IMG/VR virus record: IMGVR_UViG_3300036770_004568
Location: 1-64,000 of that record
Strand: one strand, 5' to 3'
Origin: a virus
DNA: 64,000 nt
Shown here: piece after piece, positions 4,451 through 51,688 of the stretch
Layout of the letters: each line of letters begins with the position of its first letter
How positions within the stretch are numbered: position 1 is the stretch's first letter
Notes under the pieces: generated by a model
Database searches by the model: none
What the model was told of the DNA's origin: nothing
Seen by the model: the letters and a program-made list of their open reading frames with translations, nothing else
Made by a program: the position numbers and the translations under genes

Positions 4451-5254
4451 ATGGAAAAACCTGATTATCCCGATCCCCATTTCACCGTCACGGTCCTCAG
4501 TCAAACCGAGCGTCCCCAGCGGCTGATCTATGCCGCCATGCATCAGGACTACAGCGAGCACTGCATCAGTGAGAAATGGGAATCGTCCATCATTACTGAA
4601 ACCACAGCGGGTGCCATCATCACCAAACGCTTGCTCGCACACCAGCACTTTGGACCACTGGAGCATCCCTCCATTACGTTCAGCACGGGCTACTTTCCAC
4701 ACTCGGTGCTGCAGCAAGCCCGAACGCACAGGGTTGGGACAACCTGGGACAGCCAGTCGAACCGCTATACATCACAACGCATTCTTGATCTCGCTTCTTT
4801 GATTGAGCAAATCAAGGAGCGTACTCCTAATCTCAGTATACAGGAACTTGCAGCTCTGGTTGCACCTGATATTGAGAAGGTGTTCTATCTCAGGCCGCCT
4901 GGGGAATACACCGATCGCCAGGGTGATCGCTACCACTACACAACGGACCACCGGCTCAATGACCTGGTGTTGGTGCTGCATTGCGTGCTGCACTACAAGG
5001 AGAATGTTGAGGGGCACGGCTATTCCGAAGAGCATGCCCGTGGCCTGATCCCCTTTGATATCCGTCAGCACTTTGTGGTGTCGTTCAATGTCCGCTCTCT
5101 CATGCACTTTATGGACATGCGCATGCCGCTTGATGCCCAGTACGAGATCCGCTGTCTCTGTGAGCTGATGTGGCCTCACTTTCAAGACTGGGTGCCAGCC
5201 GTTGCGGACTGGTACAGCAAGACCCGTAAAGGCAAGAACAAGCTCGCCCCCTGA
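4451..5254 (+). CDS. thyX: flavin-dependent thymidylate synthase
   Basis: Makes dTMP from dUMP using methylenetetrahydrofolate and FAD. The ThyX signature R-T-H-R-x7-S followed by NRYTSQ lies near residues 91-110, a cyanobacterial/cyanophage-type variant of RHRx7S. The C-terminal FNVRSLMHFMDMR and AQYEIR blocks of the family are present. Its 267 residues are within the usual range. It starts 5 nt after the lipoprotein gene and shares one base with the next gene. Confidence 0.93.
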   Translation: MEKPDYPDPHFTVTVLSQTERPQRLIYAAMHQDYSEHCISEKWESSIITETTAGAIITKRLLAHQHFGPLEHPSITFSTGYFPHSVLQQARTHRVGTTWDSQSNRYTSQRILDLASLIEQIKERTPNLSIQELAALVAPDIEKVFYLRPPGEYTDRQGDRYHYTTDHRLNDLVLVLHCVLHYKENVEGHGYSEEHARGLIPFDIRQHFVVSFNVRSLMHFMDMRMPLDAQYEIRCLCELMWPHFQDWVPAVADWYSKTRKGKNKLAP

Positions 5255-21617: not shown

Positions 21618-22661
21618 ATGAAAACTTGCAAGTGCTGCAAGCAGGAGCTTCCGCTAAGTTCTTTTTATGAGCATAGTGGATGTCGTGATGGTTATCGTCC
21701 TGAATGTAAACAGTGTACATGTAATAACCAAAAAAAGCATAGAGCTGCTAATACCGATAAGATTAAAGCAAGGCAAAAACGCTATCGATCAAATCTTCAA
21801 GAGAAGAATAAGACTTATCAGCACTCCGACCCGATTAGGTGTAGAGTGTGCAAAGAGGTGAAGCCTCCTTCAGAGTTTCATAATAACAAATCACGTAAGA
21901 CGGGAAAGAGTGATGTTTGTAAGTGTTGCTGCAGCATTTACCAAAAAGGCTATCGAGCGAACAATAAAGAGAAAATACGCATCTCTTGGAAAAGATGGTA
22001 TGAATCAAACAAGGAGCGAGTAATTACTCAGCATCGAGAGTATTACGCGGCTAATCCTGAGAAGAGACGTACATACATGCAGCAATATCAACGTAAACAT
22101 CGCACAAGAATTCTAGCCCTTCGTCGTCAGTGGCGACAAAAGAACCCGGACAAGATAAGTGCTTCCACGAAATCAAGGCGTTATCAGTCTGATCTCATGG
22201 TAAAGTCTCTTACTCCATCTGAAGTATCTGCGCGAAATAGGATTTATCTTTTTCGAGACTTCCTGAACCTGCTCTTTCCATTAACTGGCTATCTGTTCCA
22301 TGTTGATCACATTGTACCACTCGCTCGCGGTGGGACTGAACACCCTGATAATTTGCAAATACTGCGTGACAAAGAAAACCTATCAAAGGGATGCAAGCTT
22401 GCCCACGAGGCTTCACTAAAGCCCTTGCCAGTACCAGAATCATTTTCCGGACTCTTAACAATGAAGCTCTATTCTGATCTCAGTAAAGAAGTTGAAATTG
22501 TTGAGGTATATCATCTTTGGATTCAGCACATCAAGAAGTACTACGACGAGCACGAAATTCCCGACCAGGATCATCCTGAAGAGGTGGTGGCGACGCAAGA
22601 CGTAGTTGTTAACCAAACGGTAACCGTCGATACCGTGACCGTCGAGACCCTGGTGGCTTAG
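21618..22661 (+). CDS. HNH endonuclease with a copy of the exonuclease C-terminus
   Basis: Two N-terminal zinc ribbons (CKCCKQEL...CKQC and CRVCKEVK...CKCC), a Lys/Arg-rich linker, then an HNH core near residues 225-260 (HVDHIVPLARGG, HPDNLQ, N, KGCK). This is a typical phage homing endonuclease. The C-terminal ~50 residues are not nuclease: they repeat the end of the upstream exonuclease (IKKYYDEHEIPDQDHPEEV, then T-V-E/D repeats). Its DNA is more A/T-rich than its neighbours, consistent with recent arrival. Confidence 0.85.
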   Translation: MKTCKCCKQELPLSSFYEHSGCRDGYRPECKQCTCNNQKKHRAANTDKIKARQKRYRSNLQEKNKTYQHSDPIRCRVCKEVKPPSEFHNNKSRKTGKSDVCKCCCSIYQKGYRANNKEKIRISWKRWYESNKERVITQHREYYAANPEKRRTYMQQYQRKHRTRILALRRQWRQKNPDKISASTKSRRYQSDLMVKSLTPSEVSARNRIYLFRDFLNLLFPLTGYLFHVDHIVPLARGGTEHPDNLQILRDKENLSKGCKLAHEASLKPLPVPESFSGLLTMKLYSDLSKEVEIVEVYHLWIQHIKKYYDEHEIPDQDHPEEVVATQDVVVNQTVTVDTVTVETLVA

Positions 22662-24096: not shown

Positions 24097-27000
24097 ATGG
24101 AGAAGCGGGAGTCCCTAAAGAAAACCTTAAATCCTGGCGAGATCAAACTGGAGTGGATCCCCAAGAATTGGCCCCTGACCCCGTTGGGTGCCTACAAGAA
24201 TGCCTATATCCAAGACTGGCAATCTAACCCGTTCTCTATTGAAGAAATTAGAACGGAAATTAGCCAAGGCCGATGTAAAGGTGTTGGCGTCTTGGGAGGT
24301 CCCTGCTTCAACGAACGTTTTGGTTTGGTGTGGGTGGATGTCGATGGACAGTCGGTCCAGTCCAAGATTGAGGAGCTCTCACACCTTCCCTATGCGGAAG
24401 CACTGCCCGATACCCTGACGATCTGCAGCGGTCGTGTGGGCCGTGAGCGCAGATTGTACAAGGTCTTGGCTGAGGACTTTGAGATCTTTGTTCGCAACAA
24501 ATACTCTTGGCAGACCGATACCCCTGGTGAAAAACTAGAGATCCTCTGGTCCAACCTTCAAGGTGTGGTCATGGGACTGCATCCGGAGACCAGTGGCTTT
24601 TACACCCCTGATGGTCTGGGCTTTGAGTGGGCCACGGATCTCCCACTGATTCCCAGTTGGCTCAAAGATGTCATCACCTCCAAGAATGCGCGGATGGGTG
24701 GTGCCGCCAAACGGGTCACCCGTGTGGAAGGTCCTGGCTTTGCGTTCTCGCTGATTCAGGATTCCTCCAGAGATCGGGCCATGGCAGTCGAGGCCATGTG
24801 GTCGTTGCCGAGTGAGTTGGCGGATGACTATGACACCTGGATCATGGTTGGCCAGGCCTTGCATTCGGTTGATGATGAATTACTGGAGCAGTGGGATGCC
24901 TGGTCCCAGCAGTCAGAGAAGTATCAACCTGGTTTGTGCGAGCGCAAATGGGCGTCGTTCAATGCCGGATCGGGTGTGGGGCTGGGAACGCTCATTGAAC
25001 TCAGCAAGAGAGTCTCCAATGTCGTCTATGAGCGACTGGAGCGTGAGAATGCATCACTGCCTGAAGATGATGACCTCGATCAAATCGAGAAGATTCGTCT
25101 TGAGCAGATGATGATGCTTGAAGGTGTGGTGGAGCAAACCATTGAGAACACCACTGAACTGCATCACATCCATGAGGTGCTAGAAGAAGTTGTGGATGTG
25201 GTCAATGACTTTGCTGGTCAAAACCTTGTTGTTGATGAGTCATCGCTCGATACGGATAGTCCTGAACCCTCACTACCATCGCTGAAGAGAAATCCTCCCG
25301 TCAACATCATGCGGGACATGATTCTTTTCAAGATGGCTGGGAGTATTCTCTATGATCCAACACAGGAGTCCTATTACAGATACAGCCATAGATCAGAAGG
25401 CGTGTGGGGCAAGCTATCAAGTTTTGAAATGAACTCCATCATCCAGAACTACCTGGATGAAATGCACCTGCCCAAAGGCTATTCATCAGGGACGGTTCAA
25501 TCACTGATGGATCTCCTCGGACCACGGCTGGGTCAGGTGGAGTGGAACAACAAGCCCAACTTGCTGTGCTTCAAGAATGGGGTTCTTGATACCGAGACCA
25601 TGACCCTGATGCCCCACAGCAGGGACTTCTACATGGTCACCCAATTGCCATTTGACTACGACCCTTCTGCAGATTGTCCCCGTACCAAGCAGTGGATTGC
25701 CTATACCCAATTCAACAATGAGGAGATGGTCAAGGTGCTGCAGGCCTGGTTGCGTGCGGTGCTGCTGGGACGCCATCAACTGCAGATGTTCCTGGAATTG
25801 ATTGGTGCTGCCGGTGCTGGTAAAGCTCAGCCCAATGACGCTCGTATCTTGACGCCCGATGGATGGCGCCATTTGGATTCCATCAAGGTCGGTGATCATG
25901 TGATTGCCGCTGATGGCAATCCATCGTTGGTCATGGGGATCTATCCGCAAGGACGCAAGGAGATCTTTTCTGTTGTCTTTGATGATGGCAGTGTGGCTGA
26001 GTGCTGCAATGAGCACCTCTGGCAGATCTACATCGGTGACAATCGCAACCACTACATCTGGACACTGGGGCAGATCCAGGAGTACCTCAAGAAATGTCCT
26101 GATGCACGGATCTCAATTCCTCTCTGTCAGCCAGTGCAGTTCCCTGTGCAGCAGATCCAGGCGGAACCCTACGCCTATGCACGGGAAGTCATTGATTTGA
26201 TGAACAGTGGATCGGAGTCCAACAAGATTCACTGTATCCCGATTCAGTACAGACTGAATACCATCTCTGTTCGTCTGCATTTCCTGCAGGGTCTGATGGA
26301 CCTAGCCGGTAGCACCAGGGAGGATGGGATGTGTGTGTTTGAGTGCAAGGAAGAGTACTTTGCTTCGGACCTGGCTTCGATCATCCGTAGCCTGGGAGGT
26401 AAAGTTTGGGTGCGTCCGCAGAAATCCAGGTCCAAGAAAAACCCTGTTGTGACCTATCGGTTGGAGTTCTTCTTGCATCCGATGTTTGCCCCCTTCCGCC
26501 TCAACGATGAGAAGCTGGTGGAGTGGCGTAAGGCTTACAACGGCTTTGCCCACACCAAGGTGATTGACAAGATCACGTTCTCTCGCTACTCAGAAGCGCG
26601 TTGCATCTACATCAACAACCCAGCTCACCTGTACATCACGGATCACTTCGTGGTGACGCACAATACTTCGTTCTCAAACCTGTGTGTGGCCCTGGTGGGA
26701 ACTGAGAATACCTTTAGCACCAGGCTCAGCCTGCTGGAGAGCAACCGCTTTGAGGTCAGTGGTGCCTATCAGAAGAAGCTGATTGTGATCGCCGACTCGG
26801 AGCGCTATGGCGGATCGGTGGATACGCTCAAGGCATTGACAGGTGGTGATCAGATTCGCTCGGAGCAAAAGTTCCAGCGTCAAGCCTCTTCGTTTGTGTA
26901 CACAGGAATGTTGGTGCTCACGGCCAACGAGAGCTTGCAGACCACAGATCCCAGTTCCGGTCTGTTCCGGCGCCGCCTGACCGTTCCTTTCTCTCGCTCC

Positions 27001-27663
27001 AGGGCTGGGCAGAAGAATATTGAACTGATTGCCTTTGATGCACTGGGCAATCCTTATGGGTATCTGGCTGGTGAGCTCAGTGGCGTGGTGAACTGGGTGC
27101 TGTCGATGAGTGAGGAGGAGATGCTGGAGTACACCAAGAACGCCACAAACCATATCAAGGTTCTCAAAGAGCAGAAGGCTGAGTTGCTGTCTGAATCCAA
27201 CACTCTGATCGACTGGATGCAGGAGCGGATCGTCTTTGATCCCAATGCCGCAACGGCGGTGGGTCACAAGCAAGACGCTGAGGCGGGTCAGTTCTCCGTG
27301 CGCAATGCCGAGAGCTGGTTGTATGCCTCTTATGTCGATGCCTGCCGCAAAGCCAATGTTCGCGAAGTCGGGCGCCCCAGGTTTGTCCGGTTGCTGGAGG
27401 ACATCTGCATCAACCAGCTGCGGGTCAAGGTGCTGAAGATCAAGGGCAAGAGGACCCGTCACATCTTCAAGGGTTTGGCAATTCGCAAGGCTGATTCGTT
27501 CTATGACGGATTCCCATCGATTGTGGACTATGCGTTCAATGCGGACAAGTGGGAGTATCTGTATGGTTCACAAGAGACCATTGAAGAGCAGTTGAAGCAA
27601 GACCTGGTGCTGGAGCATCAACCGTCCCAACTCAGTTCGGGAATCCCTGATTTACCGTTCTGA
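24097..27663 (+). CDS. primase-polymerase/D5-like helicase interrupted by an intein
   Basis: A replicative primase-helicase. The N-terminus resembles a primase-polymerase domain (GVGVLGGP, then VWVDVDG with the D-x-D metal site, then TLTICSGR). A PriCT-2-like region follows (DDYDTWIMVGQALHS, about 230-300). The C-terminal half is a D5/P4-type SF3 helicase with Walker A GAAGAGK-TSF split after Lys576 by a 280-residue intein, and a downstream TANESLQTTDPSSGLFRRRLTV with the Arg finger. Without the intein it is 908 residues. It replaces T4-type gp41/gp61 in this phage. Confidence 0.88.
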   Translation: MEKRESLKKTLNPGEIKLEWIPKNWPLTPLGAYKNAYIQDWQSNPFSIEEIRTEISQGRCKGVGVLGGPCFNERFGLVWVDVDGQSVQSKIEELSHLPYAEALPDTLTICSGRVGRERRLYKVLAEDFEIFVRNKYSWQTDTPGEKLEILWSNLQGVVMGLHPETSGFYTPDGLGFEWATDLPLIPSWLKDVITSKNARMGGAAKRVTRVEGPGFAFSLIQDSSRDRAMAVEAMWSLPSELADDYDTWIMVGQALHSVDDELLEQWDAWSQQSEKYQPGLCERKWASFNAGSGVGLGTLIELSKRVSNVVYERLERENASLPEDDDLDQIEKIRLEQMMMLEGVVEQTIENTTELHHIHEVLEEVVDVVNDFAGQNLVVDESSLDTDSPEPSLPSLKRNPPVNIMRDMILFKMAGSILYDPTQESYYRYSHRSEGVWGKLSSFEMNSIIQNYLDEMHLPKGYSSGTVQSLMDLLGPRLGQVEWNNKPNLLCFKNGVLDTETMTLMPHSRDFYMVTQLPFDYDPSADCPRTKQWIAYTQFNNEEMVKVLQAWLRAVLLGRHQLQMFLELIGAAGAGKAQPNDARILTPDGWRHLDSIKVGDHVIAADGNPSLVMGIYPQGRKEIFSVVFDDGSVAECCNEHLWQIYIGDNRNHYIWTLGQIQEYLKKCPDARISIPLCQPVQFPVQQIQAEPYAYAREVIDLMNSGSESNKIHCIPIQYRLNTISVRLHFLQGLMDLAGSTREDGMCVFECKEEYFASDLASIIRSLGGKVWVRPQKSRSKKNPVVTYRLEFFLHPMFAPFRLNDEKLVEWRKAYNGFAHTKVIDKITFSRYSEARCIYINNPAHLYITDHFVVTHNTSFSNLCVALVGTENTFSTRLSLLESNRFEVSGAYQKKLIVIADSERYGGSVDTLKALTGGDQIRSEQKFQRQASSFVYTGMLVLTANESLQTTDPSSGLFRRRLTVPFSRSRAGQKNIELIAFDALGNPYGYLAGELSGVVNWVLSMSEEEMLEYTKNATNHIKVLKEQKAELLSESNTLIDWMQERIVFDPNAATAVGHKQDAEAGQFSVRNAESWLYASYVDACRKANVREVGRPRFVRLLEDICINQLRVKVLKIKGKRTRHIFKGLAIRKADSFYDGFPSIVDYAFNADKWEYLYGSQETIEEQLKQDLVLEHQPSQLSSGIPDLPF
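25825..26664 (+). other. intein (280 aa, residues 577-856), class 3 type, with degenerate LAGLIDADG remnant
   Basis: The intein starts at Ala1, lacking the usual Cys/Ser, and ends T-H-N before Thr+1. It has blocks A (ARILTPDGW, LDSIKVGD), B (NEHLW) and F/G (RCIYI...VVTHN). Trp66 two residues after His64, Cys260 at block F and Thr278 before H-N form the W-C-T triad of class 3 inteins. FLQGLMDLAGS at 153-163 is a single LAGLIDADG-like motif with Ala in place of the second acidic residue, so homing activity is doubtful. Confidence 0.88.
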
Positions 27664-31103: not shown

Positions 31104-32969
31104 ATGGGTGTCAAGATTACAGGTGCTGTTGGTAAAGATGATGATAAGCTCTATTCACTAGCTGGTACACCTACGCTTGATCTTAGATTTGCATCAACCA
31201 AAAGTCTGACAGACTATGTCTCAGGTAAGAACCTGATCACGTTCACCAGGGCCAGCACTGGGACGTACGTGGACTCCGATGGCGTGATCCGCAGCGCAGC
31301 GACGAACTTGCTGCTCAGGAGTGAGGAGTTTGATAATGCGAGTTGGTCACGTGTGCGGCTAAGTACCGTTAATGCTAATGGAGCAGTTTCCCCTAACGGG
31401 ACGCTTTCCGCTGATGAGATGGTAGTGGACACAGCAAATGGCACGCATTCAATCTATAGTAATACTATTTCCTCTACCACTGCGACCTATTCAGCAAGTG
31501 TTTACCTAAAAGCAGGGACTTCAAACTTTGCCTTTTTTGGCTTGACTGATTTGGCAACAGGTGGTGCTGAAAGAAGGATCAACCTTTCTACGGGGGTCGT
31601 TGATACTGTCAATATCGGAGGAGCAGGTTCTTGGACTTCTGTTTCTTCGACTGTTGCCTCTGTTGGCAACGGTTGGTACAGGCTTACAGTGACGGCAACT
31701 CAGGGGGGCGGTACTAGCGTTGCACTCCAGGTACTTGTCGGAAATTCAAGTGGTCAGCGCACTTACTTAGGAAACAACACAGATAGTGTTTACGCATGGG
31801 GCGCCCAACTAGAACTCGGCTCCACGGCCACAACGTACATCCCAACAGGTGCCACGATCAATTCGGCGCCACGCTTCGACCACAACCCGCTCACGGGCGA
31901 GTGCCTGGGGTTGTTGGTCGAGGAGAGCAGAACCAACAGCATTCGCAACAACACGATGGTCGGTGCGGTAGCTGGTACGCCGGGGACGTTGCCAACGAAT
32001 TGGAGTGAAAGCCTTGCCGGGCTAACGCGAGAAGTTGTCGGGACAGGAACAACAAACGGCATCAACTGGATTGACCTAAGACTCTCAGGTACATCAACTG
32101 GCACGGTTGTCAATCTCTCAATGGAAGCAATCAATGTGGCGGTGGCTGCTGCTGGTCAGAACTGGACCAACTCTTTCTGGATTGCCCGTGTTGGCGGTAC
32201 TACAACTAACGTCACTGGTGTTAACTCACGCATTCGTTCTTACAATTCAACCCCTGCCTTCTTGGGTCAACATGATGGTTCTGCTATCACTTTAACCAGC
32301 TCTCTTGTAAGGCACGAAGCTACCTATTCAAATTTGCCAGCTACAACAGCATTTGTTGAGCCTGTAGTGCGAGTGGTCGTAGCTAATAGCTCTGCCATCG
32401 ACATCACCCTCCGCATCGGCCTGCCCCAGTTAGAGCAGGGGGCATTTGCCACTTCAGTCATCCCCACCACCGGCACCGCTGTCACACGCAGTGCGGATAT
32501 TGCAACTCTATCTGGTACTAACTTTTCGAGTTGGTACTTTCCTGCGCAAGGCACTCTATTTGCATCGATGTCTTCTGCATCTGGTGCTGCATATACGGGC
32601 TATGTTCTTTCTGTAGGTCCTGACTTCAATAATACTATTCAGATGTATCGACAATCTGACACACAGCCTGTTGCGCGAGTACGAGTTGGAGGTGTTGATA
32701 CTTATGGATCTATCGGCAGTGGTCCTGTTTGGACGGGTACAACACTTGGAAAGTTTGCATTGGCTTTATCACCATCTAGCGGACGCCAAGCATTTAACGG
32801 AACATTAGATTCGGCTGGTGATGATCTCAATATTACCTTACCTGTTTCGTCAAGCATGTCCATTGGTTCTCTGGCTGGCTCAAGCATTTTTGCAAATGCG
32901 CACATTCGACGCATTGCTTACTTTGACCGCCGCTTACCCAACGCCACTCTTCAAGCCATCACAACCTAG
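31104..32969 (+). CDS. tail-fibre/spike-like protein (621 aa)
   Basis: Same family as the preceding gene: PTLDLRFASTKSLTDYVSG, FTRASTGTYVDSDGVIR, LLLRSEEFDNASW, then SRTNSIRNNTMVGAVAGTPG and a C-terminal RRIAYFDRRLPNATLQAI that recurs in other fibre genes. The central SRTNSIRNNTMVG block is shared with the gene at 49197, so modules have been shuffled. A late-type promoter motif precedes it. Confidence 0.75.
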   Translation: MGVKITGAVGKDDDKLYSLAGTPTLDLRFASTKSLTDYVSGKNLITFTRASTGTYVDSDGVIRSAATNLLLRSEEFDNASWSRVRLSTVNANGAVSPNGTLSADEMVVDTANGTHSIYSNTISSTTATYSASVYLKAGTSNFAFFGLTDLATGGAERRINLSTGVVDTVNIGGAGSWTSVSSTVASVGNGWYRLTVTATQGGGTSVALQVLVGNSSGQRTYLGNNTDSVYAWGAQLELGSTATTYIPTGATINSAPRFDHNPLTGECLGLLVEESRTNSIRNNTMVGAVAGTPGTLPTNWSESLAGLTREVVGTGTTNGINWIDLRLSGTSTGTVVNLSMEAINVAVAAAGQNWTNSFWIARVGGTTTNVTGVNSRIRSYNSTPAFLGQHDGSAITLTSSLVRHEATYSNLPATTAFVEPVVRVVVANSSAIDITLRIGLPQLEQGAFATSVIPTTGTAVTRSADIATLSGTNFSSWYFPAQGTLFASMSSASGAAYTGYVLSVGPDFNNTIQMYRQSDTQPVARVRVGGVDTYGSIGSGPVWTGTTLGKFALALSPSSGRQAFNGTLDSAGDDLNITLPVSSSMSIGSLAGSSIFANAHIRRIAYFDRRLPNATLQAITT

Positions 32970-35163: not shown

Positions 35164-37470
35164 ATGTCCTCGATCCACATTGTCAAGCGCAATAAGTCCA
35201 AGGAAGCCTTTGATATCGCCAAGATCAGAAAGGTGGTGCAATGGGCCTCGGCTGGTCTCGATGTCAACCCGATGGAGCTGGAGGCCAACCTGGCTCTCCA
35301 TGTCAAAAATGGCATGACCTCTAAGGAGATTCACAGCACCCTCATTGATACGGCGCTGCGTCTTACCTCACCCCAGGAACCTGACTGGCGGCTGCTGGCT
35401 GCTCGTTTGAAGCTCATCGACTTCTACAAGGACGTGCATCTGCGCCGGGGAATGACCTATGAGTATCGCTATCCCAACTACCTCGATACGGTCAAGCTGC
35501 TGGTGAAGCAGGGTCTCTATTCCCCTGTGCTGCTGGAGAAGTACACCGAGAAAGAGCTGATCAAAGCTGGTCAATTTATCAAGCAGGACTATGACCTGGA
35601 GTTTGACTTTGCTGGGATCAACCTGATGATCAAGCGCTACATGATCGAAGGCCCTAAGGGTGTGATGGAGATGCCGCAAGAAGCACTCCTCTCCGCTGCC
35701 CTGCTGATTGAGCAGGACCAGCCCGATGATGTGCGTCTGAGCCGGGTCAAAGAGACCTACACCTACCTGGCCCAGCGCAAGATCTCACTGGCGACACCGA
35801 TCCTGATCAACTTGCGCAAGCCCAACGGCAACCTGTCGAGCTGCTTCATCACCAAGTTCAAGGACGACATCAACTCCATCTTCCACACCATGGAGCAGAT
35901 CGGTCAGATCGGATCCAGTGGTGGTGGTGTGGGCGTGTGCGTCACTCCCATCCGTGCCCACGGCGCCCGCATCAAAGGGATTCCTGGTCGTGCCGGTGGA
36001 GTGGTGCCCAACATCCGCACCATCAATGACATTGCCCTGTACTTCAACCAGGGCGGCAAACGAGCGGGTGCTGTGACCGTGGCCTTGGACAGTTGGCATC
36101 TCGACATTGAGAGCTTTTTGGAGCTGCAGACCGAGAACGGAGACCAGCGCTCCAAGGCCTATGACATCTTTCCCCAGGTGGTGGTCACGGACTACTTCAT
36201 GGCGTGCGTGGATAACGATGCTGACTGGTATCTCTTCGATCCCCATGAGGTGCGCGACGGCTTTGGGATTGAGCTGGCGGATCTGTGGGGTTTGGAATTT
36301 GAAGAGGCTTACAAGATGCTGTGCATGCAAGCTGAAGCGGGCGGCATTGAGCTGTACAAGGTCATCAATGCCAAGACCCTGTACAAGCACATCATGAAGA
36401 CCCAGCTAGAGACGGGGATGCCCTATGTCACGTTCAAGGACACCATCAACCGTGCCAACCCCAACCCCCATGTGGGCATCATCCCCTGCACCAACCTGTG
36501 CGTGGAATCGTTCTCGGTGGTACAGCCCAGCTCGGTGAGCAACCTACGCCTGCGTGATGACGTGCTCTACGGCAAGGAGATCGGTAGGGAGTCCGAACCA
36601 GGGTTGATCCATACCTGCAACCTGGTGTCCATCAACATGGCGAATGTCAAGTTGGAGGAGATGGAGGCGGTGTGCAGGACTTCGGTGCGGATCCTGGATA
36701 ACTGCATTGATATCACTGATGTGCCCGTGGTTGAAGGCTTCCGTCACAACACCCTGCTGCGCACCATTGGTGTGGGCCTGATGGGTCTAGCGGACTACTT
36801 CGCCTTGAACAATACGAAGTACACCGAGGCTCAGCAGCTCACCGACGAATTGGCTGAGCATTTTGGGTACTGGACCACTAAAGCCAGTATTGATCTGGCC
36901 AAAGAGCGGGGTGCCTATGTCCTCTATGACGGCAGCACCTGGAGCCAGGGTCTGATCAATGGCAAGACGCTGGACTGGTACCGGATCAACAGCAAGACCA
37001 ATGGTCTGCTGGATTGGACTCCTCTGTTTGAAGATCTGCAGATCTATGGGGTGCGCAACAGCCACATCCAGGCCATCGCACCCAACACCAGTAGCTCCAT
37101 CGTGCAGGGCTGTACGGCTTCGGTGTTGCCGATCTTTAACCGCTTTTACATCGACAACAGCGGGTCCCAGTCTGTTCCTGTGGCACCTCCGTACCTCAAA
37201 GACAAGTTCTGGTTCTACCAGGAGTCCAAGTCCATTGACCAGAAGGTGGTGGTGGACATTGTCAGCCGCCTGCAGCAGTACACCGATACTGGGATCTCCA
37301 TGGAGCTGCTGTTCAACCTCAACTCAGGCATTACGGCCAAGGACATCTTTGAGACCCACATGGAGGCGTGGAAGAAAGGCACCAAGGCCATCTACTACAC
37401 CCGCAGCATCCAAAAGGACGCTGAAGCGGCCCATGCCGATAAGGAGGTCTGTCTGGCCTGCGCTGGCTAA
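35164..37470 (+). CDS. nrdA: ribonucleotide reductase class Ia, alpha subunit
   Basis: Reduces ribonucleoside diphosphates to dNDPs with NrdB. An ATP-cone occupies about residues 2-90. Catalytic residues are readable: NLSSCFI, the N-x-C-x-E active-site triad in CTNLCVES, the radical-transfer Tyr pair in AIYYTRS, and the second redox Cys in TCNLVSINM. The C-terminal CLAC is the thioredoxin/glutaredoxin-reducible Cys pair. Length (768 aa) is normal. nrdB follows after 44 nt. A 200-nt leader precedes the ATG. Confidence 0.96.
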   Translation: MSSIHIVKRNKSKEAFDIAKIRKVVQWASAGLDVNPMELEANLALHVKNGMTSKEIHSTLIDTALRLTSPQEPDWRLLAARLKLIDFYKDVHLRRGMTYEYRYPNYLDTVKLLVKQGLYSPVLLEKYTEKELIKAGQFIKQDYDLEFDFAGINLMIKRYMIEGPKGVMEMPQEALLSAALLIEQDQPDDVRLSRVKETYTYLAQRKISLATPILINLRKPNGNLSSCFITKFKDDINSIFHTMEQIGQIGSSGGGVGVCVTPIRAHGARIKGIPGRAGGVVPNIRTINDIALYFNQGGKRAGAVTVALDSWHLDIESFLELQTENGDQRSKAYDIFPQVVVTDYFMACVDNDADWYLFDPHEVRDGFGIELADLWGLEFEEAYKMLCMQAEAGGIELYKVINAKTLYKHIMKTQLETGMPYVTFKDTINRANPNPHVGIIPCTNLCVESFSVVQPSSVSNLRLRDDVLYGKEIGRESEPGLIHTCNLVSINMANVKLEEMEAVCRTSVRILDNCIDITDVPVVEGFRHNTLLRTIGVGLMGLADYFALNNTKYTEAQQLTDELAEHFGYWTTKASIDLAKERGAYVLYDGSTWSQGLINGKTLDWYRINSKTNGLLDWTPLFEDLQIYGVRNSHIQAIAPNTSSSIVQGCTASVLPIFNRFYIDNSGSQSVPVAPPYLKDKFWFYQESKSIDQKVVVDIVSRLQQYTDTGISMELLFNLNSGITAKDIFETHMEAWKKGTKAIYYTRSIQKDAEAAHADKEVCLACAG

Positions 37471-37514
37471 CCAACCCCTCGAACCACGGATTCCCTCAAT
37501 CAACAACCAGCACT

Positions 37515-38552
37515 ATGGAACGGCAGAAACTGTTTGATCCCACGGGCGACGATTCTCTGGAGACACGCTCAATCATTGGTGGTCATAGCACCAACATCCT
37601 CAACCTCAACAATGTGCGCTTTCGCTGGGCACCCAAGTTGTACCGCACCATGCTGGAAAACTTCTGGGTGCCGGAGAAGGTCGATCTGAGCGGCGATAAG
37701 GAGTCGTACAAGAAGCTCACACCCGATGAGGAGATCGCCTATGACGAGATCCTCTCGTTTTTGATCTTCCTCGACAGTATTCAGACCAATAACATCGGGA
37801 ACATCAACGACTACATCACGGCACCGGAGGTCAAGGTGCTGTTGGCCATCCACCAGTACCAGGAAGCGATTCACAGCCAGTCGTATCAGTACATCATTGA
37901 GACGATTGTAGCAATGAACAAGCGCAACCTGATCTATGACTACTGGAGAAAAGACAACGTCCTGCTTTCTCGTAACTCCTACATTGCCAACATCTACCAG
38001 GCGTTCCTGGAGTCGCAGACCGATGCCAACTTTGCCAAGGTCCTGATTGCCAACTACTTGCTAGAAGGGCTCTACTTCTACAACGGATTTAACTTCTTCT
38101 ACAACTTGGCATCGCGTGATCTGATGCTGGGAACAGCTGAGATCATCCGCTACATCCAGCGTGATGAGCTGACCCACTGCCTTCTCTTTGAATTTATCAT
38201 CAAGGAGATCAAGCGTACTCGTCCCACCTTCTTTGATGAGGAGGTGATCGAGGAGATGGTCAGGCAGGCTGTGGACCAGGAGATCACCTGGACCAATCAC
38301 ATTGTGGGTAACAAGATCTTGGGGGTCTCTGAGGAGACAACGGATCAATACACCAAGTGGTTGGCCAATGATCGTTGGCGCAAGCTGGGGTTCAAGGGAC
38401 AGCTCTACAAGGGCTATGCCAAGAACCCCTACAAGCACCTGGAGGCCTTTGCCGATACCGGTGGTCAGGGATCAGTGAAGAGCAACTTCTTTGAGTCCAG
38501 CATCACCTCCTACAACCTCTCCAGTGCGGTGGAGGGTTGGAATGACTTCTGA
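37515..38552 (+). CDS. nrdB: ribonucleotide reductase class Ia, beta subunit
   Basis: Holds the diiron-tyrosyl radical needed by NrdA. All ligands align with E. coli NrdB: Asp in FLDSIQ, Glu and His in EAIHSQSY (the Tyr here is the radical site), Glu in LLEGLYFY, and Glu/His in RDELTH. Length 345 aa is usual. Cotranscribed with nrdA; a strong terminator follows at 38575. Confidence 0.96.
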   Translation: MERQKLFDPTGDDSLETRSIIGGHSTNILNLNNVRFRWAPKLYRTMLENFWVPEKVDLSGDKESYKKLTPDEEIAYDEILSFLIFLDSIQTNNIGNINDYITAPEVKVLLAIHQYQEAIHSQSYQYIIETIVAMNKRNLIYDYWRKDNVLLSRNSYIANIYQAFLESQTDANFAKVLIANYLLEGLYFYNGFNFFYNLASRDLMLGTAEIIRYIQRDELTHCLLFEFIIKEIKRTRPTFFDEEVIEEMVRQAVDQEITWTNHIVGNKILGVSEETTDQYTKWLANDRWRKLGFKGQLYKGYAKNPYKHLEAFADTGGQGSVKSNFFESSITSYNLSSAVEGWNDF

Positions 38553-39202: not shown

Positions 39203-39330
39203 TTGACTACTCCCTGCGCTAAAGCACAAGGATTCTCATAAGAGATTTCAACGATCATGATATTGTGGTAATAACCACAGCCTCATGCGTTGGGGCGAAG
39301 TCAAAGCGCCCCTAGCTGGTTTGCATTGCA
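39203..39330 (-). ncRNA. possible omega-RNA overlapping the tnpB 3' end
   Basis: Two hairpins lie inside the last codons of tnpB: GGGGCG/CGCCCC (39292-39312) and TGTGG/CCACA (39264-39279), followed by the right-end hairpin and TCAA. This layout fits the guide RNA of TnpB systems. Its 5' boundary is a guess. Confidence 0.4.
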
Positions 39331-40546
39331 TTCCAGGTACATTGGCTTTACGACCAATGTTGTAAGCACCATTGCAGTCAGCATTGATGACTTCACCATT
39401 GGCGGCTTTGTAGAGACCACGAGTAATACGTCGTCCTGATGGTTTCCAACACTCGGGTTTTTCACCGTATACGGGAATCACATCAAGATCTAAGGCTGAT
39501 GCCTTAGACGTATAACTTTCTTCCTGCTCAATGAACAGGATCCCATAGAGCTCACAAAGCTCCATGACTCGTCGTTTAAGACGAGCCGTGGGAATCTGTA
39601 CAAACTTCTGGTTGTTTTTCTTGCCTAGATTAACAGACTGCTTTTGTCCTTTGTTCCAGCCAAACACAACTGTGCCAATCTTATGATCAAGACAGTATTG
39701 AATCACTAGTCGGGCTGCTTTGTTGACAGCGTCACGCATTTGACGGTTACGTTTAGTTGTGACACGATCAAGCAACTTAGACCAAGATCCATGAGGTTTA
39801 GACTCCTTGAGAATACTGACGCGTTTGTTGTACCACTGATTCAGTGATTTCAGATGCCTACCATCAATGATGAATGAATGACCCATGGTTGATGCACAGG
39901 TCAACCAGTTATCAATGCCATGATCAATTGCTAATGCATGTGATTGATCAAGATCTAGTGCAGATTGCTGTGCAGACTTACTGATCCATACTGCATCAAA
40001 GTAATCAGCCCGTGGGACAATTTGTAGTTCGCGGATACTGTCCCAATTTAGATTGGATGGGAAAGGAATGTAAATTTCTGGAAGTCCAAACCAGACTTTG
40101 CAATAGCGTCCGAGAGGAACTCGGACTTGGTTGTTTGTTAGCTTGAGCCAACGCTTAGGATAAATAACTTGGTACATACCGCCTGACTTACGGTATTTTG
40201 GCAGCTTAGGTTCATCAGGAAGCTGTCCTGTCTTCCATAGTTTTTCTAAAGCTCTATACGATTTAAATGATTCACCAACGCTGATACAAGTCTGTTGTGC
40301 AGAACTATTGAAGACAGACTTCATGTGAATATTGTCTTTCATCAATGTTGAAAGACGCTGTCCATTTGTAATTTGTGCAAGCGTTAGCTGACGTTTATTA
40401 GGTTTTGACTTAAAGTAAAGCTGTCTAGCAAGATAAACAGTACAGTTATACAGCTTATTGGATTCGCTGCATAAATATTGCAATACCGCCTTCAGTGACG
40501 GGTCACAGGGCAGCCGGTTGATCTGAGCGACGTATTGCTGAGCCAT
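39248..40546 (-). CDS. tnpB: TnpB (IS200/IS605 OrfB), RNA-guided nuclease ancestor family
   Basis: The 432-residue protein has the three RuvC-like acidic motifs: D208 in LAIDHGI, the E342/E343 in EESYTSK, and D390 in INADCNGAYNIGRK. The zinc finger usually between motifs II and III is missing; the stretch is SGRRITRGLYK without paired Cys. TnpB proteins in this family act as guide-RNA-directed DNA nucleases; the guide RNA usually comes from the 3' end of the gene and the right end. Orphan tnpB is common in cyanobacteria, suggesting host origin. Confidence 0.88.
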   Translation of the reverse strand: MAQQYVAQINRLPCDPSLKAVLQYLCSESNKLYNCTVYLARQLYFKSKPNKRQLTLAQITNGQRLSTLMKDNIHMKSVFNSSAQQTCISVGESFKSYRALEKLWKTGQLPDEPKLPKYRKSGGMYQVIYPKRWLKLTNNQVRVPLGRYCKVWFGLPEIYIPFPSNLNWDSIRELQIVPRADYFDAVWISKSAQQSALDLDQSHALAIDHGIDNWLTCASTMGHSFIIDGRHLKSLNQWYNKRVSILKESKPHGSWSKLLDRVTTKRNRQMRDAVNKAARLVIQYCLDHKIGTVVFGWNKGQKQSVNLGKKNNQKFVQIPTARLKRRVMELCELYGILFIEQEESYTSKASALDLDVIPVYGEKPECWKPSGRRITRGLYKAANGEVINADCNGAYNIGRKANVPGMQCKPARGALTSPQRMRLWLLPQYHDR

Positions 40547-42903: not shown

Positions 42904-43668
42904 ATGACACAACGTAGCCGCAGTTACCACGATCCCCTGGACCTCGGTCTTTATGATCGAACATCCATTCGCTACATCAAGGGTCGGATTGGTGCTGAGA
43001 ACAAAGGGCAGACGGCATTTCGCTGTACCAATGACGGTGCTTCCAATGCTTTTCAGAACGTCTGGTTCAAGGTGACGATCACGGACCCCGGCTATCTCAT
43101 CTTTCTCAAGGATGACAACAGGGATAAGCGATTTTATTCCGTCAATGTCTATACGGCTGATTCTGAGCGGCGTCAATTGGCCTACCCCATGCTCACCGGT
43201 GATGTCTGTAGGAAGTTCGATAACATGGTAGCTGGCTTCTCATCGGATCTCTACAACATCTCTGATCAACGCCCAGAGTTAAGGGACCGGAACCGCACAT
43301 CCCTATTTCCCTTGCCCAAGGGTTCCTATGTCATCAACATCTCGACCCAGCGCTGGGACATGTTTCGTTATGGCGTCTACATGATTCTGGAGATGCCCAC
43401 GCAGACCGGCTATCTGGAACTGGAAACTGAGACCAACAGCATGCGTGAGTTTGCTTTGCAAGAAGCCACAACCCAAAATGTTCCAAAGTTCTTCTTGCTT
43501 GAGGATGCTGTGGTGGGTGTTCTGCAGCCGGTGCGGGAGCGCAGTGACCATGACGAGCGGGAATTGCGTGGTGCTTGGCGCGAGTCGTTTAAGGATGTGC
43601 CTTTCCCGAAGGAGATTCAAGATTACATTCGTGCCACCCAAGTTCCCGCTTCAGCTTGTTTCAACTGA
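42904..43668 (+). CDS. hypothetical protein, possible virion protein (254 aa)
   Basis: A soluble protein with mostly beta-rich sequence (VWFKVTITDPGYLIFLKDD, YVINISTQRWDMFRYGVYM), reminiscent of a jelly-roll or baseplate/decoration protein, and a charged C-terminal part. No family can be named. A late-type promoter motif directly upstream fits a structural gene. Confidence 0.6.
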   Translation: MTQRSRSYHDPLDLGLYDRTSIRYIKGRIGAENKGQTAFRCTNDGASNAFQNVWFKVTITDPGYLIFLKDDNRDKRFYSVNVYTADSERRQLAYPMLTGDVCRKFDNMVAGFSSDLYNISDQRPELRDRNRTSLFPLPKGSYVINISTQRWDMFRYGVYMILEMPTQTGYLELETETNSMREFALQEATTQNVPKFFLLEDAVVGVLQPVRERSDHDERELRGAWRESFKDVPFPKEIQDYIRATQVPASACFN

Positions 43669-49196: not shown

Positions 49197-50471
49197 CTAG
49201 AGGGTTATGGATTGCAAGATGTTGTTCTGCAGCCGTTGGCCCCAATACGTGAGGCGGCGGATCGTGCCGTTTAGGTTAAAGCTAGAGCTACCGTACTGTC
49301 CTCCTAGTGCTGCCTGGTTAATAACACTTGAGGGGGTTCCACTGTTGTCTGTCACCACAGAACCACCATTTACAACTGCAGCAAAATCGTCCGTTTTGTA
49401 TGCAAATGTGGCACGCCGCCTGCGTACACCAGTAAGCCCTAAGGGAAAGAGAACGGCTTGATCTACCCCGGATGTCCGAGAATGCCCCGTGCCAAGACTT
49501 TCCGTGTTATACGCAATTTGAATTATATCGTTACCTGTGTTGCGAGCATCAAATACATGTGGAAAAAAGTTAGAAGGTACCGCAAACTCTCGGTAGGCAT
49601 CAGCAAACACCGTCCCCTCATCTTGCCGATACCACGAACTGAAATTAGTCCCGGAAATCGACGCCACATCAGCCGTGCGCGTGGCGGCGGTGCCGGTGGT
49701 GGGGATGACTGAGGACACAAACGCCCCCTGCTCAAGCTGGGGTAGGCCGATGCGGAGGGTGATGTCGATGGCCTGGCCAATGATCGAGGTGAAATACACA
49801 CCGGACTGAACAAAACTGGTTGTTCCACCCATTGACGGGCGTGCAATTGATAAGCGAGATGCGGCACTGAAACTAGATCCGGCTGAACTCCAAAGCGCAT
49901 TGGATTCCGTGACGTACCCACCAGCCCCGTTTCGCTCAATTACTCGAATGAACTGGTTTGCAGTTCCATTCAATGTTCCACCGATGATGGCAATGTAAGC
50001 AGATCCAGTCCATGCCTGCCCACTGCTTGCAGCAATAGCCGTGTTTGCATCAAAGTTTACTGACCACCCGCTGGTATCCCCAGCCGTGCCGCTTACTCGA
50101 ATGTCGATATACGCGATGCCGCTTTGCGTGCCGGTTGCTACGACTTGACTGGTGAGCCCAGTACCCAATGAACTCTGCACCCAATTCGTCGGCAACGTCC
50201 CCGGCGTACCAGCAACAGCACCCACCATCGTGTTGTTGCGAATGCTGTTGGTTCTGCTCTCCTCAACTAACAGCCCTAGACTCTCGCCCGTTGTTGGATT
50301 GTGATCAAACCGAGGTTCATTCACACCAGCCGCTCGCAGGATACCCTGTGCATCTGTATAGGTTCCTGTGCTATTACGCGTGAAGGTAATCCGTGGATCG
50401 AGACGCTTGGTCTTGGCAAAGTTTAAATTCAGACTTGGACGTATTGTGGGATAGAGACTTGAAATAGCCAT
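49197..50471 (-). CDS. tail-fibre/spike-like protein (424 aa)
   Basis: Member of the same fibre family: RPSLNLNFAKTKRLDPRITFTRNSTGTYTDAQGILR, EPRFDHNPTTGESLGLLVEE, then SRTNSIRNNTMVGAVAGTPG shared with the 31104 gene, and C-terminal SSWYRQDEGTVFADAY and RRLTYWGQRLQNNILQ. Its 3' half shares IPTTGTAATRTADVASISGT with the end of the 1717-aa gene. It starts 5 nt after the next fibre gene upstream. Confidence 0.75.
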   Translation of the reverse strand: MAISSLYPTIRPSLNLNFAKTKRLDPRITFTRNSTGTYTDAQGILRAAGVNEPRFDHNPTTGESLGLLVEESRTNSIRNNTMVGAVAGTPGTLPTNWVQSSLGTGLTSQVVATGTQSGIAYIDIRVSGTAGDTSGWSVNFDANTAIAASSGQAWTGSAYIAIIGGTLNGTANQFIRVIERNGAGGYVTESNALWSSAGSSFSAASRLSIARPSMGGTTSFVQSGVYFTSIIGQAIDITLRIGLPQLEQGAFVSSVIPTTGTAATRTADVASISGTNFSSWYRQDEGTVFADAYREFAVPSNFFPHVFDARNTGNDIIQIAYNTESLGTGHSRTSGVDQAVLFPLGLTGVRRRRATFAYKTDDFAAVVNGGSVVTDNSGTPSSVINQAALGGQYGSSSFNLNGTIRRLTYWGQRLQNNILQSITL

Positions 50472-50476
50472 GGTGT

Positions 50477-51688
50477 TTACCTCGTCAGAGCTTGAAGTGT
50501 TGTATTGCTTAATCGCGCTGGCCAGTAGGTTAGACGTTTTATATGTCCATTAAGCGTAAGCAGTCCTGACAGTGATTGACCAATTGACATTTCATTTAAT
50601 TCAACCGGCAAAGTTCCACTTGCATCTATAGATACTGATCCACCGCTTACGGATCTTGCATAGTCGTCTCTTTTTATACCAACAGCGCTTTTCTTGGGTC
50701 CTGCTAGTAGTCCTGTGGAAAAATCTGCTGATACCGGCCCAGAGTCAGAACTATAAACACTATTTGAAAGCACGGTTGGACCACCACTCCAAATCCATTG
50801 TCGAATAAAGTTTGTGTTCGGTAAGCTAGTGTTGAATATTTGGTAATAGGCTCGACTGGTGGAACTAGCATATGGATAATCTGTAGCCTCACAATAAACC
50901 GTCCCTTGATTCTGTGAATACCAACTAGAAAATCTTGACCCCGTCATTGACACGACATCAGCACCTCTCGTGACAGCCGCAGCACCGGTCGGGATGTAGC
51001 TGGTAGGGAAGGCACCGACTTCCAGTTGCGCACCCCAAACTAGGATGTCAATAGAGTTAGTTGTGTTTATAGTACCTCTTGTTCCTATTTGGATACGATC
51101 TGCTGTTAAGGCAATATTAGTGCTTGTTATTGTGTATCTCTGCCACTCCGTAGTGACAATCGCTAGGCTGCCTCCGCTACCTGTCTCATTTCGGAAATAA
51201 ACCTCTTGGGTTGCACCTGTGTTCGACTTCATCCACACGCTGATGCTTATGGTGTGGGGGTTGGAAAGTCCCGATACTGGCTGAATGAGCGTCGATTGAT
51301 CTCCAGACGTGTTGCCCGCTCCCCTGTCTGCTTGAAGGCGATCTGCAACCATCAAGCCGTTTGGGGCCAGGGCATAATTAGGGGTCACAAACGGAGCGGA
51401 TCCTGTTCCAGTGACAGTTGAAGTCCACGGGTTCTGATCAAACTCCTCACTCCTGAGCAGCAAGTTCTGCCGCTGCTCCTCCACCAATAGCCCCAGGCAC
51501 TCGCCAGTCACGGGGTCATGGTCAAACCGTGGTTCATTCACCGCAGCCGTGCGGATGATTCCTTGTGCATCCGTGTAGGTCCCAATGCTGTTGCGGCTGA
51601 AGGTGATCCGAGGATCCAGCCGTCCTGCATTGCTGAAATCCAGATTCAGCTCTGGTTCAATCGTGGGATACAGCGATGCAATGCTCAT
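50477..51688 (-). CDS. tail-fibre/spike-like protein (403 aa)
   Basis: Same module order as its neighbour: EPELNLDFSNAGRLDPRITFSRN, EPRFDHDPVTGECLGLLVEE, QRQNLLLRSEEFDQNPW, TSYIPTGAAAVTRGADVVSM, SSWYSQNQGTVYCEA and KRLTYWPARLSNTTLQALTR. The middle differs from other copies, as expected for receptor-binding diversity. Cotranscribed with flanking genes. Confidence 0.75.
   Translation of the reverse strand: MSIASLYPTIEPELNLDFSNAGRLDPRITFSRNSIGTYTDAQGIIRTAAVNEPRFDHDPVTGECLGLLVEEQRQNLLLRSEEFDQNPWTSTVTGTGSAPFVTPNYALAPNGLMVADRLQADRGAGNTSGDQSTLIQPVSGLSNPHTISISVWMKSNTGATQEVYFRNETGSGGSLAIVTTEWQRYTITSTNIALTADRIQIGTRGTINTTNSIDILVWGAQLEVGAFPTSYIPTGAAAVTRGADVVSMTGSRFSSWYSQNQGTVYCEATDYPYASSTSRAYYQIFNTSLPNTNFIRQWIWSGGPTVLSNSVYSSDSGPVSADFSTGLLAGPKKSAVGIKRDDYARSVSGGSVSIDASGTLPVELNEMSIGQSLSGLLTLNGHIKRLTYWPARLSNTTLQALTR

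What the first reader, a model, noticed from the sequence alone, without database searches (positions are those of the whole stretch)
25825..26664. Class 3 intein with a W-C-T triad inside the Walker A motif of a primase-helicase
The intein begins with Ala and ends H-N before Thr+1, so the standard N-terminal nucleophile is absent. Block B has His64-Leu-Trp66, block F has Cys260 and block G has Thr278-His-Asn. Trp at B:12, Cys at F:4 and Thr before the penultimate His define class 3 inteins, in which the block F Cys makes the first branched intermediate. The mycobacteriophage Bethlehem DnaB intein is the established example. A class 3 intein in a cyanophage D5-type helicase P-loop seems unusual.
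Basis: partly seen in the sequence, partly recalled or inferred. Interest (0 to 1): 0.78.

Follow-up and report, generated by a model that had tools for sequence, protein, structure and literature searches.

The report
Class 3 intein in cyanophage-like primase-helicase
A phage DNA-replication protein is interrupted in its ATP-binding loop by a 280-residue self-excising protein segment of a well-known class (class 3 intein); it keeps all its splicing residues but its DNA-cutting (homing) half is truncated and lacks the catalytic acid, so it is a new example of a known kind rather than a new system.

Summary
ORF 24097-27663 (+) is a Prim-Pol/PriCT-2/D5-type (P4-family, SF3) primase-helicase, interrupted between Lys and Thr of its Walker A motif (GAAGAGK|TSF) by a 280-aa intein, 25825-26664. 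Ala1, His64, Trp66, Cys260, Thr278-His279-Asn280 and Thr+1 are as stated. Sequence alignment puts His64, Trp66, Cys260 and Thr278 on His65, Trp67, Cys124 and Thr143, active-site residues of the class 3 MchDnaB1 intein. Among 168 inteins collected (the window's included), 164 lack Cys1 and carry W-C-T; 150 follow a GK. AlphaFold gives a confident intein fold (pLDDT 94.8). Class 3 is therefore well supported, but about 1,700 such inteins were known by 2020 and GK|T is a favourite site, so it is not very surprising. New details: the LAGLIDADG endonuclease has lost its first motif (~70 aa) and the catalytic Asp of its second (D to A), so homing is probably lost; related S-EIV1-like primases (80 of 80 in each of two overlapping searches) are uninterrupted; and no other class 3 intein was found in an SF3 helicase. 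Splicing itself is inferred, not shown.

The parts
24097..27663 (+). Host ORF, 1188 aa: Prim-Pol (aa 21-135), PriCT-2 (232-301), D5_N (460-535), intein (577-856), rest of the SF3 helicase (DUF5906, 861-959)
   Evidence: Pfam/NCBIfam/PHROG hits; 39% and 44% identity to the S-EIV1 primase over the two parts
25804..25824 (+). N-extein part of the Walker A motif, GAAGAGK
   Evidence: sequence; alignment with GPGKSGKST of S-EIV1
25825..26664 (+). Intein, 280 aa, Ala1 to Asn280
26014..26022 (+). Block B His64-Leu65-Trp66 (B:10 and B:12)
   Evidence: aligns with His65/Trp67 of 6rix; H64 and W66 invariant in 40 sequences
26167..26535 (+). Remnant LAGLIDADG homing endonuclease domain (residues about 115-237); first motif and about 70 aa missing after residue 119
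   Evidence: helices and strands in the model
26284..26313 (+). Second LAGLIDADG motif LQGLMDLAGS; Ala161 (26305-26307) where 27 of 39 aligned relatives have the catalytic Asp
26602..26604 (+). Cys260, block F:4 nucleophile (first branch point)
   Evidence: aligns with Cys124 of 6rix; invariant
26656..26664 (+). Block G Thr278-His279-Asn280
   Evidence: Thr278 aligns with Thr143 of 6rix; H and N in 168/168
26665..26667 (+). Thr+1, second branch point and restored Walker A Thr
   Evidence: sequence; +1 is T or S in all 168 inteins

Best explanation
It is a class 3 cis-splicing intein in the Walker A loop of a phage primase-helicase. Cys260, held in an active site with His64, Trp66 and Thr278, attacks the Lys-Ala1 bond and takes the N-extein as a thioester (first branch). 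Thr+1 takes it over as an ester (second branch), Asn280 cyclises with help of His279 and releases the intein, and an O-to-N shift restores GAAGAGK-TSF, that is a working P-loop. The precursor should lack ATPase/helicase activity until splicing. The intein descends from a homing form, but its LAGLIDADG endonuclease has lost motif 1 and the motif 2 catalytic Asp, so it is now probably immobile and inherited vertically. Shown: the sequence features, homology, fold prediction and endonuclease decay. Inferred: splicing, order of steps, loss of cutting.
For: Exact residues. H64/W66/C260/T278 align with His65/Trp67/Cys124/Thr143 of MchDnaB1 (roles in PMC7664689). 164 of 168 collected inteins have a non-Cys residue 1 with W-C-T, +1 is T or S in all, and 150 follow GK; neither Cys F:4 nor residue 1 was part of the search patterns. 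H64, W66, C260, H279, N280 invariant in 40 sequences. AlphaFold pLDDT 94.8, pTM 0.92; PDB matches are inteins, including class 3 6bs8 and 6rix with TM (target) 0.78-0.85. Uninterrupted site in S-EIV1 and in 80/80 relatives in each of two searches. Endonuclease decay. Frame open over 1188 aa, codon use like the exteins.
Against: No splicing experiment. Identity to characterised class 3 inteins is low and the intein sits on a long branch (nearest relatives over 2.3 substitutions per site away). A decayed endonuclease could foreshadow decay of splicing. The placing of Cys260 at F:4 rests on sequence alignment; catalytic distances were not measured in the model.
Confidence: 0.93

Rival explanations
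1. A class 3-derived intein that no longer splices (or only cleaves), so the helicase half is inactive or made as two pieces.
For: The homing endonuclease has decayed; a class 3-type intein pseudogene is on record (Arthrobacter FB24 Arth_1007, PMC3196547, title and abstract).
Against: All splicing residues are intact, the frame is open through both exteins, the C-extein keeps conserved helicase residues, and the unspliced protein would lack a Walker A motif in a replication gene.
Confidence: 0.05
2. Class 2-like splicing: Thr+1 attacks the N-terminal junction directly and Cys260 is not needed.
For: Lack of a nucleophile at residue 1 is shared with class 2 inteins.
Against: The complete W-C-T signature and the exact match to class 3 active-site residues; in the class 3 Bvi IcmO intein the +1 residue could not replace Cys F:4 (PMC5222942).
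Confidence: 0.02

Closest known systems
Mycobacterial class 3 DnaB1 inteins (M. smegmatis 6bs8, M. chimaera 6rix)
   Same: Class 3 residues at corresponding positions; insertion in a helicase P-loop; same fold (PMC6195587)
   Different: Those are 139-145 aa mini-inteins in DnaB; this one is 280 aa with an endonuclease remnant, in an SF3/D5-type primase-helicase
Class 3 inteins of phage SNF2/DarB-type, PhoH, terminase and DnaB proteins (e.g. Pseudomonas phages EL and PhiPA3, IMG/VR loci L002, L004, L005)
   Same: About 30-39% identity over the intein, AQPxxA start, ECCNEHLW block B, THN|T end, GK| site
   Different: Most are about 345 aa with both LAGLIDADG motifs; other host proteins
Mycobacteriophage Bethlehem DnaB intein
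   Same: Founding class 3 case by citation; W-C-T mechanism
   Different: Not fetched or aligned here; rests on citations in PMC5222942
Uninterrupted primase of Synechococcus phage S-EIV1 (AHV82140.1)
   Same: Orthologous host protein, 39-44% identity
   Different: No intein; Walker A is GPGKSGKST

Membership tests
Class 3 intein | No Cys nucleophile at intein position 1 | tested here: met
   Ala1, fixed by the intein-less alignment
Class 3 intein | Trp at B:12 | tested here: met
   Trp66 aligns with Trp67 of 6rix; invariant in 40
Class 3 intein | Cys at F:4 | tested here: met
   Cys260 aligns with catalytic Cys124 of 6rix; invariant in 40
Class 3 intein | Thr at G:5 before His-Asn | tested here: met
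   Thr278-His279-Asn280
Class 3 intein | Ser or Thr at +1 | tested here: met
   Thr+1
Class 3 intein | Hint/intein fold | tested here: met
   AlphaFold and Foldseek; predicted, not solved
Class 3 intein | Splicing through a branched intermediate at Cys F:4 | not testable with these tools
   needs expression and Cys260Ala
Active LAGLIDADG homing endonuclease | Two LAGLIDADG motifs each with a catalytic acidic residue | tested here: not met
   motif 1 absent, motif 2 catalytic Asp is Ala161
P4/D5-type SF3 primase-helicase (host protein) | PriCT-2 and D5_N domains with a Walker A | tested here: met
   Pfam above cut-off for PriCT_2, D5_N, Prim-Pol, DUF5906; TIGR01613 hit below its whole-protein cut-off

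The most novel reading that the evidence does not exclude
First class 3 intein in an SF3/D5-type helicase P-loop, in which a catalytically dead, single-motif LAGLIDADG half-domain is kept as a folded part because splicing has become a control on the primase-helicase (for example by oxidation of the catalytic Cys260, as described for the mycobacterial DnaB1 intein).
Probability: 0.1. Interest if true: 0.5.

Novelty: new member of a known kind. Interest (0 to 1): 0.25.

Why it matters
It adds a host-protein type (an SF3 primase-helicase) and probably a virus group (S-EIV1-like cyanophages) to a large family of P-loop class 3 inteins, and gives a clear half-decayed stage: splicing residues complete, endonuclease truncated and missing its catalytic Asp. 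That is useful for studying how immobile inteins persist, but it does not change what class 3 inteins are.

Tried and rejected
Search for other class 3 inteins in GxGNGK-type (P4-like) P-loops in viral contigs: 73 pattern matches, none a P4-type primase with an intein. A small SF3 profile (five sequences) found no SF3 host among the 168 intein-bearing ORFs other than the window; the next hit, E 0.048, is a RecD/PIF1-like helicase. MT839152.1, which seemed to match across the junction, has a GK|A intein in a different, apparently terminase-like protein. Searches with the C-extein alone failed for want of good patterns and were repeated with more sequences. Codon usage gave no sign of recent import. 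DNA-level search of known phages found no near relative. Pfam/NCBIfam on the intein alone gave only sub-threshold or no hits. The 2011 paper on the phage origin of class 3 inteins is not held.

Full report
Observation. The window is part of an 82,610-base virus record. ORF 24097-27663 (+, 1188 aa) carries Prim-Pol, PriCT-2, D5_N and DUF5906 domains and matches phage DNA primase families. Residues 577-856 are a 280-aa insertion, 25825-26664. The insertion splits the Walker A motif GAAGAGK|TSF.

Boundaries. The primase of Synechococcus phage S-EIV1 (KJ410740, 79,178 bp) aligns on both sides, 39% over the N part and 44% over the C part, with the break after the Walker A Lys. An alignment-based search of IMG/VR gave 80 primases, all uninterrupted, reading VGPGKSGKSTY[AS]N. 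Because a search with the whole protein may favour uninterrupted copies, I repeated it with the C-extein only: again 80 of 80 uninterrupted and no intein hit in those loci (the two sets overlap). Of 243 and 275 confirmed relatives only the best 80 were kept each time, so rarer intein-bearing copies may have been missed. The window has Thr, the relatives Ser, at +1.

Class. PMC5222942 and PMC7891396 define class 3 by Trp B:12, Cys F:4, Thr G:5 and lack of an N-terminal Cys nucleophile. Sequence alignment with the MchDnaB1 intein (PDB 6rix) pairs His64, Trp66, Cys260 and Thr278 with residues 65, 67, 124 and 143, which PMC7664689 names as the WCT and catalytic-triad residues. From IMG/VR and GTDB genomes I collected 168 inteins, the window's included. 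Of these, 164 have a non-Cys residue 1 with W-C-T; the exceptions are one A-F-C-T, two with Cys1 (C-W-C-S and C-W-C-T) and one C-L-G-H. +1 is T or S in all; 150 follow GK; H64, H279 and N280 occur in all. The search patterns demanded parts of block B and block G (including His-Asn), so those residues are partly selected for; residue 1 and Cys F:4 were not in the patterns, and Trp was not in the viral one. In a 40-sequence alignment the invariant columns are H64, W66, G191, C260, H279 and N280.

Fold. AlphaFold2 with the 40 sequences gives pLDDT 94.8 and pTM 0.92 over the whole 280 aa. Foldseek against PDB finds inteins at the top: PI-SceI (TM, query, 0.71) and the class 3 structures 6riy/6rix/6bs8 (TM, target, 0.77-0.85). 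Named viral matches are mostly intein-bearing terminases, helicases and other nucleic-acid enzymes.

Homing endonuclease. Full-length relatives (median 345 aa) carry two LAGLIDADG motifs, e.g. LLGVILGDG and LNGLMDSDG. In the window the first motif and about 70 aa are missing after residue 119, and the second reads LQGLMDLAGS, with Ala161 where 27 of 39 relatives have Asp. Several other short relatives have also lost motifs. The enzyme is therefore very probably dead, while the remnant still folds confidently in the model. The intein's codon use resembles that of the exteins, which gives no sign of recent arrival.

How unusual. Class 3 inteins in P-loops are common: 1701 were counted in 2020, 82.5% with LAGLIDADG motifs (PMC7891396), and mycobacteriophage terminases have inteins at the same K|T position (PMC5050341). 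Host proteins of relatives seen here include SNF2/DarB-type, PhoH, RecD/PIF1-like, DnaB and terminase. I found no second case in an SF3/D5-type helicase, with limited searches. Cyanophages with inteins are known in other proteins: dCTP deaminase of CL131 and terminase of Mic1. Paper searches for a class 3 intein in a P4/D5 primase gave none.

Verdict. It is a new member of a known kind. Splicing, Cys260 dependence and loss of endonuclease activity remain to be shown.

Noticed in passing
L003:6001-7080 and L073: Relatives with the W and C residues of class 3 but also Cys at position 1 (L003: C-W-C-S; L073: C-W-C-T); they could be class 1/class 3 intermediates.
   Followed up: no
window 26002-26007 (Cys60-Cys61): The ECCNEHLW stretch before the catalytic His holds two adjacent cysteines, present as CC in 75 of 168 inteins; a possible redox partner for Cys260, untested.
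   Followed up: partly
L092:4001-4930, L103:4001-4930: Two other class 3 inteins with a shortened endonuclease also carry Ala for the catalytic Asp of the second LAGLIDADG motif (GLMDVAG, GLLDTAG), suggesting repeated loss at the same residue.
   Followed up: no
window 39248-40546 (-): Transposase-like gene (PHROG 506, E 6e-29) in the phage genome.
   Followed up: no
window 21618-22661 (+): Separate HNH endonuclease-like ORF about 1.4 kb upstream of the primase (Pfam HNH just above cut-off); might be a free-standing homing endonuclease.
   Followed up: no
window 31104-32966 (+), 49197-50471 (-), 50477-51688 (-): Three proteins all matching the same tail-protein family, PHROG 5939.
   Followed up: no
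window 35164-38552 (+) and 4451-5254 (+): Ribonucleotide reductase large and small subunits and a thymidylate synthase.
   Followed up: no
window 43556-43652 (+): ARAGORN reports a tRNA-like structure with a four-base anticodon (aagg) near tRNA-Pro and tRNA-Thr; it overlaps the end of an ORF and may be spurious.
   Followed up: no
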